Below, piece after piece: positions 38,274-43,251 of a stretch of DNA of 43,251 bases. The notes beneath the pieces were generated by a model. That model did no database searches and was not told the DNA's origin. It saw only the letters and a program-made list of their open reading frames with translations. The stretch comes from Bacillota bacterium (GTDB taxonomy: Bacteria > Bacillota > Limnochordia > Darwinibacteriales > JAAYFS01): assembly GCA_012728115.1 (NCBI GenBank), contig JAAYFS010000042.1:1-43251 (forward strand), given 5' to 3'. The translations under genes were made by a program, and so were the position numbers. Positions within the stretch are counted from its first letter, which is position 1, and each line of letters opens with the position of its first letter.

Positions 38274-39620
38274 TTAAATCTCACCAGCTTGGATATCGCT
38301 CGTCATACCAATTAACCGCAATGCTTCAGTGAGCGCATCTTCTGCGGGAACTTCTATATCTGGAATCAACGGTAGATCTCGTTTGGAAACGTCTGGTCGT
38401 AGAAAATACTTGTAGGATACGGTAAATGCCAATCCTGCATTGGGCGTTTGAAAATATAGAACATCGCCATAGCTTGAGGGCATGTTGCCAGGGCTCTCAC
38501 CGATTACTTTACCCAATCCGTTGTCCGAGATTAACACCGCAAAATCCATCGCTGCGCTGAAGGTATCCGAGCTGGTCAACACATAAACATCCCCTGTAAA
38601 AGCCGGCTCAAGCCGTGGATTTTCTTGTTGTCGCGACTTGTTTTTCCATATGATTGGACCTTCGCGTACTTCCGTAGTCATGGTTAAATAGCTATCTACT
38701 GGTAGGTAGCGGACAAATTCATTTGCAACCCGAGAATCGCCTCCTGGATTTCCTCTTAAGTCCACAATCACGCTAAGGATGTCATTGTCCTGAACTTGCA
38801 TAAAGAAATCCAAAAGCCCTTCCTTATATTCTTCATTATATACACAGTGGTACAAGGAGAAAATCCCCACACCAGCGGCCAAATCTAGCACATATTCGAA
38901 ATCCCCTTCGGTTTTATCCGCTCCGTCTTCGATTCTCTCATGCAAAGAAAACCCTATTGTTATATGATCGCTGTTCTTTGTGTCAGCTAATACGATCGAA
39001 ATTTCCCCCTCTGTATCCACCCCCAGAAAAGACAGGTATTCACCGCGGGTTAAGCGTGAAGCAAAGGAATGCCTTGCCCATGCCTCCAGTTCGAAGGAAA
39101 ACTGCTCAAGGAATTTTTGGTAGAGGTCGGCAACAGCAATTCCTCCGATTTGAACCACGGCATAGCTGGAATATTGGCTTCCGAGGCAATAAAGTGTATC
39201 TTGCTCCCATCTAAAGGACAGGGGCAGATGTTTCCCATCCAAATATTCGACCCCCACGGAGGTGTGGGCATCGCCTAGAATTGCGAGCAGGCGTGCGGCG
39301 CTCTGCCATAGCGACAGAACTGATACCCCTGGGGACGCAGTTAATCTCTGGCGTTCCTTTTTGTACTCGGTCTGCATCTTATCGGGGAGGCCATGAATAC
39401 AAGCTGGGTGGCGCTCTTTCAAGCGAGCCACGATATAATCAAGATCCGCGACTGCTTGGGGACCAGATAAAATAGTGTCAAGCCTTTCCGAGGGGCGAAA
39501 TGCAGACACCGTACCACGATAAGGGTTAAACCAAAACTGCCGCACTCCAAAAAGGGAGATTCCGCCTAGCGCCAAAACACACAGGAGGATTAAGATGTGT
39601 TTTATCCATTTTCTTTTCAT
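38274..39620 (-). CDS. S41-family peptidase-like membrane-anchored protein
   Basis: A 448-residue protein with an N-terminal anchor (ILILLCVLALGGISLFGV), so the catalytic part is outside the cytoplasmic membrane. The S41 (tail-specific protease) core is seen as VIVDLRGNPGGDSRVAN and LTSSDTFSAAMDFAVLI, the latter holding the nucleophilic Ser; a late EVPAEDALTEALRLI matches family ends. No PDZ domain is clear. It is GC-rich compared with neighbours (37 of 60 bases in 39241-39300). It faces the C45-Omp85 gene across 243 nt. Confidence 0.85.
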   Translation of the reverse strand: MKRKWIKHILILLCVLALGGISLFGVRQFWFNPYRGTVSAFRPSERLDTILSGPQAVADLDYIVARLKERHPACIHGLPDKMQTEYKKERQRLTASPGVSVLSLWQSAARLLAILGDAHTSVGVEYLDGKHLPLSFRWEQDTLYCLGSQYSSYAVVQIGGIAVADLYQKFLEQFSFELEAWARHSFASRLTRGEYLSFLGVDTEGEISIVLADTKNSDHITIGFSLHERIEDGADKTEGDFEYVLDLAAGVGIFSLYHCVYNEEYKEGLLDFFMQVQDNDILSVIVDLRGNPGGDSRVANEFVRYLPVDSYLTMTTEVREGPIIWKNKSRQQENPRLEPAFTGDVYVLTSSDTFSAAMDFAVLISDNGLGKVIGESPGNMPSSYGDVLYFQTPNAGLAFTVSYKYFLRPDVSKRDLPLIPDIEVPAEDALTEALRLIGMTSDIQAGEI

Positions 39621-39863: not shown

Positions 39864-40730
39864 ATGAACTACGTTCATCGAATAGTACGGTTATTTGCCC
39901 TTACAGTGATATTCATCGTACTGCTTTCGAGTTCATCGCTGAGTTCCTCGGAATTGCGTGTGGAGCAAATTGGCGATAGGTTCAATGCTGGCGAAGGGTA
40001 TATGGAGATGTATGGGCCCTTGGTTTTTATGCATCTCAAAGGCACTCCTTATGAGATGGGGCTTCAACATGGAACGTTGCTCGCATATTTATATTCGGAA
40101 GATTATTTGCTGAAAATGAAGGACGAGCTCGATCTATTTAAAGCCCAGGCTTCTGGCTTTGAACAGCTTGTTCAGACTTTTAAAAAATTCTACTTTCAGT
40201 ACAAGATGGCTCCTTGGATTCTTAGAAATATCCCAGAGGATTTGTTTCAAGAACTAGAGGGTATTGTCGCTGGAGTGAGTGGTGGCAAAAATACTGATCC
40301 CATGGAAGTAATTATCGCCAATGTATCCCAGGATCTAGGCATGACATTTGGCTGTACTTCTATAGTGGCTTTTGGTGAGGCAACAGCCAACGGATCCTTA
40401 TACCATGCCCGTAACCTCGATAATCTGTCCATGGTTGATTGGGCGCAATATGGCTATGTAGTGGTCTATGAACCAGATTACGGGTATCCATTTATAACCC
40501 ACATATACCCAATCTATGCTGGTACTATGCAGGCTATGAATAACCAAGGAATTACCGTCTCCATGAATTACTCTTTGGTGGATCAGGAAGATAATTCACT
40601 TGATGGTATGGCCATGGTGTTTCTGATGCGTCAAATTGTGCAACATGCATCAACTTTAGACGAAGCCCTTGAGATTGTACTTAGTACACCACGAACTTTC
40701 GGTATGAATATCTATCGTGATTTCGGATAG
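39864..40730 (+). CDS. C45-type Ntn hydrolase (penicillin-acylase/AAT-like), N-terminal part of a frame-split gene
   Basis: An exported cysteine Ntn hydrolase. Residues 1-29 are a signal peptide. The C45 motif is clear: LKGTPYEMGLQHGTLLA, then GCTSIVAFGEATANGSLYHARNLD with Cys164, the self-activated nucleophile exposed after cleavage at Gly-Cys; later GYPFITHIYPIYAGTMQAMNNQGITVSMN. Family members hydrolyse amide bonds such as acyl-amino acids or penicillin. The frame stops at TAG 40728, but the family's next conserved segment (VISDSKIPDAVVLEVD) is found in the +1 frame, so this ORF is only part of a longer gene. AGGTTAGGA precedes ATG. Confidence 0.85.
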   Translation: MNYVHRIVRLFALTVIFIVLLSSSSLSSSELRVEQIGDRFNAGEGYMEMYGPLVFMHLKGTPYEMGLQHGTLLAYLYSEDYLLKMKDELDLFKAQASGFEQLVQTFKKFYFQYKMAPWILRNIPEDLFQELEGIVAGVSGGKNTDPMEVIIANVSQDLGMTFGCTSIVAFGEATANGSLYHARNLDNLSMVDWAQYGYVVVYEPDYGYPFITHIYPIYAGTMQAMNNQGITVSMNYSLVDQEDNSLDGMAMVFLMRQIVQHASTLDEALEIVLSTPRTFGMNIYRDFG

Positions 40731-42864
40731 CAAGATTCCTGATGCAGTAGTGCTAGAGGTGGATACAAGCCGTTATGCCATCAGGAGGGCCAAGGATGGA
40801 TTGCTATCTGCGACAAACCAGTATAACACCGAGTATATGCGGCAGTTCCAAGCCTCGGGATGGCTATCGTCTGCACGTCGTGAAGAAAGGCTTGGTCAGT
40901 TCTTTTCCGACAATTACGGAGATATTTGTATTGAATCTATGGTAGAGTTGCTGCGGGATCGGGGTGAGCCTGGCAGTGCTGAATATGGAGGCCTCTTGGA
41001 GGGAATCAACAATGCTGGTTCTATGTTAAGTTGTGTGTTTTCCCCCGAGGAGCAGATGATGTGGATTTCCATTCCAGACGAAGGGCGTGGATCCCCAGAT
41101 AGCGAATTCTATGCCTTTAGCCTTACTAAAGCCTTAGCTGGCGAGGACCCTGCTATCTTCTCTCGAAACATTAAACCAACCAAAGAGGATTACAATCTTG
41201 CTAACTGGCTACTTGTCCGAGAAGCAACACTTGCTTATTCTCAAAATGAATTGGCTGCTACCCTAGAATATCTCGAACAGCTTGATCCCGAATTTACCGA
41301 TGCTGAGGCGGTAGTGAACCTGAGAGCTCATACCTATCTGCGGCTGGGAAATCAAGCACAGACCAAACATAATTTCCAGATGTTGGCAGAAAGACCCTAT
41401 GTTACTGAACCTTTCTACCTGCTCCAAGCTTTGATCATTCTCGGATCTATCCATGACAATTCAGGGGATCGAGCTGCTGCAATAAAGTGCTATCAAGCGG
41501 CCTTGGAGATAGAGGTCTCCGATTTGGCTGGCGACTCTGCGTTTTACCAGCAGCTGGCTGAGGTGGGCCTGCGAAGACCCGTCTATCTAGAGTCCTCTGG
41601 TTCATCCTACTATTTTACGACTAGAGATAGTGCCATTACTCGATTTCTTAAAGCTCCCCAGGTTATCCCGAGCAATGATGTCGATTCGTTCAGCCAGTAT
41701 GATGGTATGCAAATAGTCAATGTTCGAATTCTGGGAGTCCACGAGACAAATGAAAGGATCGTTTCCCAGATTGTCCGCCTTAGACCAGGTTCGCAGTTTA
41801 GTGCTTCTCAGTTTGCATCTGGAAAGAGACGCCTCGATGCCCTCGGAGCACTCGATCAAGTCCAAATGCATGTAATTCCCATAAGCGAAGATGCCGTGGA
41901 TATCGTTGTCAGGCTCAGTGAGGGGTTTGGCTTTTACTTAGACCCTGTTCAATTTGTGATAGAGAACATATTGAACCTTTCACAAAAGACTATAGCAATT
42001 CGATACTTCAATGTAGCAGGAACATTAGCGTCTATCGGTGGAGAATACAGTTTTGGGCCGAGCCATCGTAGAGCGGTCTACCTGACATTCCCGTTGGGGC
42101 CCTGGCCTATTACCATGCGTTATCAGTCATATACAACGAACACCAAGCTCGATTGGGGTAAACATGAGGGAAGTCAATATAGCCTTGAGAGGAAGGACGC
42201 TTCTGTTAGCAGCAATATGCCTGTTGGGCAAAATAGTGCAGTAGGCCTCACACTGGGATATTCACAGAGTTATGTTACTAATATCAGTACAAACACAGGC
42301 TTAGATGTACCTAGCGATGAATATGTGACCCTAGCCACAACAATCCAAACAGGTTTACCAGGCACCACCACATGGACCCAAGGTGGGACTTCTGTGCAGG
42401 CTGGTGTTGCTATCCTAGCAAATAGACAGGACCTTCAAGAGAATTTTACCAGCTTGCATATTAAAGCGAAGAATCAGACCTATCTTGGAAAAGGTTTTGT
42501 TGCCAATATAGAAATCAATGGCGCGTGGACCCAAAGTGGGACCCCCTTTGATCGGAGGCTTCGTTTGGGTGGTAATGGGCAACTAGGGGCAAATTCCCCC
42601 ATGTTTGTTGGAGAGATGAATCTGTATTCTATGCTGGAAATACAGCGTTACTTCACCTATGACTTAGCGGCTCATGTTAATTATGAGGTAGCAAAGATTT
42701 GGGAAGATGCAGCTGATCGAGATCGAAGTACCTCGCTTCATAGTGTCGGAGTGGGCTTAACCTACCAAACTCCTATAGGTTTACGGGTTAGGGCACAGTA
42801 TAGTAAGAATTTGAGCTTAGCAGATACCCACAGCTTTAGTATTGGGTTTGTCAATCCCTTTTAA
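40717..42864 (+). CDS. End of C45 domain, TPR, POTRA and Omp85/BamA-type beta-barrel (C-terminal part)
   Basis: 715 residues in the frame +1 to the C45 gene; GTG 40717 has no SD and the frame is open only from 40708, so it is probably not started on its own. Residues ~1-30 finish the C45 fold (VISDSKIPDAVVLEV, AIRRAKDGLLSATN). ~150-270 are TPR-like helices. ~310-400 form a POTRA domain (NVRILGVHETNERIVSQIVRL, RRLDALGALDQVQMHVI). The rest is a beta-barrel of alternating strands, ending HSFSIGFVNPF with a terminal Phe, the outer-membrane insertion signal. RRLRLGGNGQLGANSPMF lies where loop 6 of Omp85 normally has a VRGY/F motif, which is missing. GC-rich (34 of 60 in 42541-42600). Confidence 0.8.
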   Translation: MISDSKIPDAVVLEVDTSRYAIRRAKDGLLSATNQYNTEYMRQFQASGWLSSARREERLGQFFSDNYGDICIESMVELLRDRGEPGSAEYGGLLEGINNAGSMLSCVFSPEEQMMWISIPDEGRGSPDSEFYAFSLTKALAGEDPAIFSRNIKPTKEDYNLANWLLVREATLAYSQNELAATLEYLEQLDPEFTDAEAVVNLRAHTYLRLGNQAQTKHNFQMLAERPYVTEPFYLLQALIILGSIHDNSGDRAAAIKCYQAALEIEVSDLAGDSAFYQQLAEVGLRRPVYLESSGSSYYFTTRDSAITRFLKAPQVIPSNDVDSFSQYDGMQIVNVRILGVHETNERIVSQIVRLRPGSQFSASQFASGKRRLDALGALDQVQMHVIPISEDAVDIVVRLSEGFGFYLDPVQFVIENILNLSQKTIAIRYFNVAGTLASIGGEYSFGPSHRRAVYLTFPLGPWPITMRYQSYTTNTKLDWGKHEGSQYSLERKDASVSSNMPVGQNSAVGLTLGYSQSYVTNISTNTGLDVPSDEYVTLATTIQTGLPGTTTWTQGGTSVQAGVAILANRQDLQENFTSLHIKAKNQTYLGKGFVANIEINGAWTQSGTPFDRRLRLGGNGQLGANSPMFVGEMNLYSMLEIQRYFTYDLAAHVNYEVAKIWEDAADRDRSTSLHSVGVGLTYQTPIGLRVRAQYSKNLSLADTHSFSIGFVNPF

Positions 42865-43017: not shown

Positions 43018-43251
43018 ATGTCAAGATCTTTAGGTAGACTATTTCGTGGTTTGTATCAGGTTGGCGCGGTAAAGAGAACCATCATTATCTGGCTATTTCT
43101 TCAGTCTTTGCTCTGGATTTTTTTCGCAGTAGGATATTTGGTTGAGCCTAGCTCGTGGATAAATGTGCAGACGATAGAGCCTTCTAGCGCAGCGGTTGGT
43201 GGGTTGGCTGCCACAGTAGGATATATCGTTGTAAGAAACTCCATCGTACTG
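43018..43251 (+). CDS. Membrane protein, cut by the window end
   Basis: The first 78 residues only, with no stop inside the window. AAGGAG precedes ATG 43018. A first hydrophobic helix (RTIIIWLFLQSLLWIFFAVGY) and a second from ~61 (VGGLAATVGYIVVRNSIVL) are visible. The product could be a polytopic membrane protein; I cannot name the family. Confidence 0.6.
   Translation, partial: MSRSLGRLFRGLYQVGAVKRTIIIWLFLQSLLWIFFAVGYLVEPSSWINVQTIEPSSAAVGGLAATVGYIVVRNSIVL

What the first reader, a model, noticed from the sequence alone, without database searches (positions are those of the whole stretch)
39864..42864. C45 Ntn-hydrolase fused (across a frame change) to TPR, POTRA and an Omp85 barrel
The two overlapping frames read as one ~1000-residue protein: signal peptide, C45 hydrolase (Cys164), TPR-like helices, one POTRA, and an Omp85-type barrel with a terminal Phe. 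Patatin-Omp85 proteins (type Vd, such as PlpD) carry a passenger enzyme on a POTRA-barrel, but with a lipase. A C45 amidase passenger is not an arrangement I know. It suggests a self-delivered amidase acting on acyl-amino acids, beta-lactams or peptides at the cell surface.
Basis: partly seen in the sequence, partly recalled or inferred. Interest (0 to 1): 0.9.

Follow-up and report, generated by a model that had tools for sequence, protein, structure and literature searches.

The report
Outer-membrane-anchored C45 hydrolase (Omp85 fusion)
A self-cleaving amide-cutting enzyme is built as one protein with an outer-membrane barrel of the BamA type in two-membraned relatives of Gram-positive bacteria, probably holding the enzyme on the inner face of the outer membrane; the copy in this window is broken by a small frameshift.

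Summary
The two frames (39864-40730 and 40717-42864) are one gene: signal peptide, C45 Ntn-hydrolase, TPR-like helices, one POTRA, Omp85 barrel. Intact relatives read it as a single ORF of about 970-1080 aa in 12 genomes. The frame change is a 4-nt tandem duplication (TATC, 40709-40716) missing in all ten relatives aligned there, so this genome's only C45 copy is frameshifted, or misassembled.

The surface-delivery reading is not supported. Nothing shows export through the barrel. The best studied analogue, PlpD, keeps its enzyme in the periplasm. I favour an outer-membrane-anchored, periplasm-facing amidase that self-cleaves before Cys164.

Three findings widen it. (1) In one family the same parts are two adjacent genes, C45-TPR and POTRA-barrel. 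(2) Eight genomes carry S41 protease-POTRA-barrel proteins; the S41 profile matches the C45 proteins' barrel modules down to E 4e-38, so related anchors carry two unrelated hydrolases. (3) LolA passes its cut-off in one of 73 class genomes and POTRA in all, consistent with enzymes being anchored by barrels rather than lipoproteins.

Neither architecture is named in the 2014 ten-subfamily Omp85 classification. New variant of a known kind. Substrate and topology are untested.

The parts
39864..39950 (+). Sec-type signal peptide (about residues 1-29), no lipobox Cys
   Evidence: Read by eye in the translation: hydrophobic core LFALTVIFIVLL followed by small residues; same layout in relatives. No signal-peptide predictor was available.
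39951..40352 (+). N-terminal pro-part (alpha chain) of the C45 proenzyme, up to Gly163
   Evidence: NCBIfam C45_proenzyme covers residues 59-398 of the intact relative L003
40353..40355 (+). Predicted nucleophile Cys164 (autocleavage expected before it)
   Evidence: Invariant in 9 diverse relatives; aligns with residue 1 (Cys) of the N-acylethanolamine acid amidase beta subunit 6dy3_B, E 1.6e-6
40356..41155 (+). C45 beta chain, including RNLD motif (residues 183-186), interrupted by the frame change
   Evidence: PF03417 in both ORFs and 1.4e-17 in intact relative L003
40709..40716 (+). TATCTATC: 4-nt tandem duplication that shifts the frame; ORF1 ends at 40730
   Evidence: Absent in all 10 relatives aligned
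41194..41541 (+). TPR-like helical region
   Evidence: TPR_8 3.6e-5; relatives match designed TPR structures; helices in model
41713..41925 (+). Single POTRA domain
   Evidence: PF07244 2.5e-5, above gathering cut-off; matches BamA POTRA in PDB sequences
41983..42861 (+). Omp85-type beta-barrel, 15-16 predicted strands, five of them after the loop-6 segment
   Evidence: Model (mean pLDDT 70.7, pTM 0.57); Foldseek to BamA/TamA E 5e-16, probability 1.00, TM-score only about 0.47
42559..42588 (+). LRLGGNGQLG: position of the Omp85 loop-6 RG(F/Y) motif, here degenerate
   Evidence: LRGY in L012, L013 and own BamA, RGF in most split barrels, GQLG in the window clade
43018..43251 (+). Start of a conserved downstream gene for a ~200-aa membrane protein of unknown function (runs off the contig); in relatives often followed by a CPBP/Rce1 protease gene
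   Evidence: Same gene behind L003, L005, L006, L011 and L042; the ~200-aa protein has no Pfam match, PF02517 1.8e-18 for the next gene in L042

Best explanation
It is an outer-membrane-anchored, periplasm-facing amide hydrolase. Steps: (1) Sec export by the signal peptide [inferred]; (2) the C-terminal Omp85-type barrel is inserted in the outer membrane by the genome's own BamA [BamA gene shown; step inferred]; (3) the C45 proenzyme folds in the periplasm and cuts itself before Cys164, so that the chain starting at Cys164 stays covalently attached through TPR and POTRA to the barrel, the N-terminal part remaining bound [inferred from conserved Cys/Arg/Asp and NAAA/C45 relatives]; (4) the enzyme cleaves amide-linked acyl groups of small amphiphilic compounds at the inner face of the outer membrane [inferred; substrate unknown]. 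The barrel is mainly an anchor, as in PlpD, in a lineage that almost lacks LolA and so probably lacks outer-membrane lipoproteins. In this particular genome the gene is frameshifted and probably makes no full enzyme, unless the duplication is an assembly error or a minority allele.
For: Single ORFs in 12 genomes under purifying selection in every domain. Catalytic Cys, RNLD and further residues invariant across fused, split and stand-alone relatives; Cys aligned to the mature N-terminus of NAAA, whose Cys126-Arg142-Asp145 triad and self-cleavage are described in PMC3432061. Barrel matches BamA/TamA. Own BamA and published outer membranes in Limnochordia (PMC11456536). Adjacent-gene version in one family. 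S41 protease on a related POTRA-barrel module in 8 genomes, which points to a reusable anchor. PlpD's enzyme is periplasmic. LolA over the cut-off in 1 of 73 class genomes, POTRA in 73 of 73; diderm Terrabacteria are reported to lack outer-membrane lipoproteins (PMC11784454).
Against: No topology, cleavage or activity data exist for any member. The full-length model has low confidence in the C45 part, so enzyme-POTRA packing cannot be read from it. Substrate is a guess by family. The C45 fusions do not group as one clade in either tree, so the fusion may have arisen or been lost more than once. The Lol argument is correlative.
Confidence: 0.66

Rival explanations
1. Type Vd-like autotransporter: the barrel moves the C45 enzyme to the cell surface, where it stays or is released.
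For: Same order of parts as patatin-Omp85 proteins; early PlpD work reported secretion (cited in PMC4104836).
Against: PlpD's enzyme is now shown to be periplasmic (PMC11116518). In family f35 the C45-TPR protein is a separate gene next to the POTRA-barrel gene, so covalent self-delivery is not general, though a two-partner export is not excluded by that.
Confidence: 0.13
2. Barrel as a channel: substrates or products pass through the barrel and are cut by the attached enzyme on entry.
For: The loop-6 RG(F/Y) motif typical of Omp85 is lost in the window clade, so the barrel may have a changed function.
Against: The motif is kept in two fused relatives and most split barrels; no conductance data; unrelated S41 proteases use a related barrel.
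Confidence: 0.1
3. A barrel-assembly or translocation helper (BamA-like/TamA-like) in which C45 is a regulatory or quality-control domain.
For: TPR and POTRA are protein-binding modules; some envelope neighbours (CPBP protease, subtilase).
Against: A complete separate BamA is present; catalytic residues are invariant, which a purely structural role would not require.
Confidence: 0.06
4. In this genome only a decaying pseudogene (or an assembly error); nothing functional here.
For: 4-nt duplication absent in 10 relatives; another copy (G029) has an in-frame TAG; G028 keeps only the last 42 residues, beside the usual downstream genes.
Against: Rest of the gene intact and like relatives under purifying selection. 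Concerns the allele, not the family, so it is compatible with the best explanation.
Confidence: 0.6

Closest known systems
Patatin-Omp85 proteins (type Vd, PlpD/FplA)
   Same: Signal peptide, enzyme, one POTRA, Omp85 barrel in one chain; enzyme expected on the periplasmic side
   Different: C45 Ntn-amidase instead of a patatin lipase; TPR region between enzyme and POTRA; found in diderm Bacillota; homodimer and lid not tested
C45 family autoproteolytic acyltransferase/hydrolase (NF040521, PF03417)
   Same: Catalytic domain well above the NCBIfam cut-off; conserved Cys and RNLD motif
   Different: Normally a free enzyme; here followed by TPR, POTRA and a barrel
N-acylethanolamine acid amidase (NAAA) and acid ceramidase
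   Same: NAAA is the best sequence match among solved structures (acid ceramidase only E 0.11); Cys at the mature N-terminus of the beta chain lines up
   Different: Animal lysosomal enzymes; low identity; substrate here unknown
BamA/TamA (Omp85 superfamily)
   Same: POTRA plus barrel fold, nearest solved structures
   Different: One POTRA only, enzyme and TPR in front, loop-6 motif degenerate in the window clade; separate BamA present
S41 protease-POTRA-barrel proteins (found here)
   Same: Related POTRA-barrel module (profile matches down to E 4e-38), same lineage, same general layout
   Different: Tricorn/CPAF-like S41 protease instead of C45

Membership tests
Omp85 superfamily | Omp85-type membrane barrel | tested here: met
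   Window barrel model matches BamA/TamA, Foldseek 5e-16, TM about 0.47; PF01103 above cut-off in L024, L012, L013, L022, L116, below cut-off in the window itself
Omp85 superfamily | At least one POTRA domain before the barrel | tested here: met
   PF07244 above cut-off in window
Omp85 superfamily | Loop-6 RG(F/Y) motif (typical rather than strictly defining; recalled, not taken from a paper read here) | tested here: not met
   GQLG in the window clade; LRGY/RGF kept in L012, L013 and most split barrels
C45 autoproteolytic acyltransferase/hydrolase | C45 domain over curated cut-off | tested here: met
   L003 2.2e-49, 168.5 bits versus cut-off 85; window halves PF03417
C45 autoproteolytic acyltransferase/hydrolase | Conserved Cys nucleophile and Arg/Asp | tested here: met
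   C164, R183, D186 conserved
C45 autoproteolytic acyltransferase/hydrolase | Self-cleavage before the Cys and amide hydrolysis | not testable with these tools
   Needs purified protein
Type Vd / patatin-Omp85 | Patatin-like lipase domain | tested here: not met
   Enzyme is C45
Type Vd / patatin-Omp85 | Enzyme-POTRA-barrel in one chain | tested here: met
   12 intact fusions
Type Vd / patatin-Omp85 | Location of the enzyme domain | not testable with these tools
   Topology experiments needed

The most novel reading that the evidence does not exclude
In diderm Bacillota that lack Lol lipoprotein sorting, related POTRA-barrel modules are re-used as a general docking platform that holds different hydrolases (C45 amidases, S41 proteases, perhaps more) at the inner face of the outer membrane, in the place that lipoprotein anchors take in E. 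coli; fused and two-gene versions are interchangeable.
Probability: 0.4. Interest if true: 0.8.

Novelty: new variant of a known kind. Interest (0 to 1): 0.64.

Why it matters
It adds two enzyme classes (C45 amidases, S41 proteases) to the short list of enzymes built onto Omp85 barrels and gives a concrete, testable answer to how bacteria without outer-membrane lipoproteins could fix enzymes at that membrane. A likely cultured ortholog (Limnochorda) makes topology and activity tests possible.

Tried and rejected
Programmed frameshifting: rejected because all ten relatives at the site have an uninterrupted frame without the extra four bases; TATCTATC is also a chance-level word in the window. 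Two separate genes with translational overlap: rejected for the window clade by the intact ORFs, but the two-gene form is real in family f35. Whole-protein AlphaFold model: low confidence in C45 with 14 sequences; the listed Foldseek hits with it were all Omp85 barrels. A search in other phyla could not be centred, so absence outside Bacillota is not shown. No paper on a C45- or S41-Omp85 protein was found in the held library; that library is incomplete.

Full report
What was checked. The window holds ORF1 39864-40730 (288 aa) and ORF2 40717-42864 (715 aa) in overlapping frames. Pfam finds the first part of PF03417 (AAT/C45) in ORF1 and, in ORF2, its remainder weakly, then TPR, one POTRA (PF07244, above cut-off) and a weak C-terminal Omp85 match. 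The window is contig 32 of a 1.95-Mb draft genome.

One gene. A search of 61 genomes with ORF2 gave 80-62% identical proteins lying in open frames of about 1000 aa without stops. Profile searches of 73 class genomes and 399 phylum genomes give intact fusions in 12 genomes: G003 (cut by the contig end), G017, G019, G020, G032, G034, G039 (two copies), G051, G053, G056, G079 and G184. G008 has the two ends on two contigs. G029 has one in-frame TAG. Named records include Limnochordia and Bacillota MAGs, Peptococcaceae bacterium 1109 and DTU065.

The frame change. Ten relatives read on directly where the window has TATC twice, a 4-nt tandem duplication. It is the only C45 gene found in this genome. 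The halves, compared with intact relatives, show dN/dS 0.14-0.17 overall, so the break is recent, a minority allele or an assembly error.

Anatomy. Hydrophobic signal peptide without lipobox (read by eye); C45 proenzyme (NCBIfam 2.2e-49 in L003; 1.4e-17 in Pfam); TPR region; POTRA; barrel. The window's POTRA-barrel model (mean pLDDT 70.7, pTM 0.57) shows about 15 barrel strands, with five after the loop-6 segment as in Omp85, and Foldseek returns BamA and TamA at 5e-16, probability 1.00, TM-score about 0.47. In the window clade the loop-6 RG(F/Y) motif is replaced by GQLG; it is kept as LRGY in L012 and L013 and as RGF in most split barrels.

Active site. Across fused, split and stand-alone relatives Cys164 and RNLD are invariant. 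Against solved structures the profile's best hits are NAAA beta subunits, with the Cys on residue 1 of the mature chain. NAAA self-cleaves at Cys126 and has a proposed Cys126-Arg142-Asp145 triad (PMC3432061).

Variants. In family f35 the parts are two genes: C45-TPR (542-601 aa frames) and a POTRA-barrel protein with its own hydrophobic leader (411-431 aa), adjacent in four genomes and on two different contigs in a fifth. C45-TPR without a barrel occurs in G048 and G066 and, more distantly, in G056. S41 protease-POTRA-barrel proteins occur in eight genomes: G001, G004, G007, G010, G017, G125, G152, G163. The S41 profile matches the POTRA-barrel of the C45 proteins down to 4e-38. In the barrel tree the S41 group is one clade (98/94) and falls beside the main C45 clade with moderate support (87/85), while four other C45 fusions fall on the other side of that branch. 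In the C45 tree fused, split and stand-alone forms are interleaved. The order of fusion and splitting is therefore open.

Setting. Own BamA is present. POTRA is found in all 73 class genomes and LolA over the cut-off in one of 73. Limnochordia have an outer membrane by electron microscopy (PMC11456536). Diderm Terrabacteria are described as lacking outer-membrane lipoproteins and the Lol pathway (PMC11784454). Downstream genes in several relatives are a ~200-aa membrane protein and a CPBP/Rce1 protease, in two with a subtilase-like gene.

Mechanism. Shown: gene structure, domain identity, conservation, genomic setting. Inferred: export, barrel insertion, self-cleavage, periplasmic location, amide substrate. 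The periplasmic location is favoured because PlpD's enzyme domain is periplasmic and POTRA domains have not been seen elsewhere (PMC11116518). Surface delivery is not excluded.

Novelty. The 2014 classification (PMC4104836) lists ten bacterial Omp85 subfamilies, including patatin, metallo and WD40 N-termini, and names no C45 or S41 one. I found no later report in the held library. Both fusions are new variants of the enzyme-on-Omp85 theme.

Noticed in passing
L022:3306-6122, L026:2828-5563, L027:3884-6553, L122:1983-4403, L123:2323-5115, L124:4051-6795, L130:2856-5684, L131:1019-3805: S41 protease-POTRA-barrel fusions in Limnochordia and relatives; apparently a second unlisted Omp85 architecture.
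   Followed up: partly
window 38274-39620 (-): A separate secreted S41 peptidase-like gene lies divergently upstream of the C45-Omp85 gene.
   Followed up: no
L116-L121: Two-gene version: C45-TPR next to a POTRA-barrel gene, spaced by a few tens of bases or overlapping open frames.
   Followed up: partly
L016 (G028): Only the last 42 residues of the barrel remain in front of the conserved downstream genes: a deletion scar.
   Followed up: no
L005/L035 (G029): Another copy of the fusion has an in-frame TAG near residue 104.
   Followed up: partly
class-wide, 73 genomes: LolA over the cut-off in only one genome while POTRA proteins are universal.
   Followed up: partly
window 43018-43251: Conserved membrane protein of unknown function (no Pfam match in the L042 relative), followed in relatives by a CPBP/Rce1 protease.
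   Followed up: partly
L033, L042: A MAG labelled Chloroflexota carries two copies close to the Limnochordia ones; probably a mislabelled bin.
   Followed up: no
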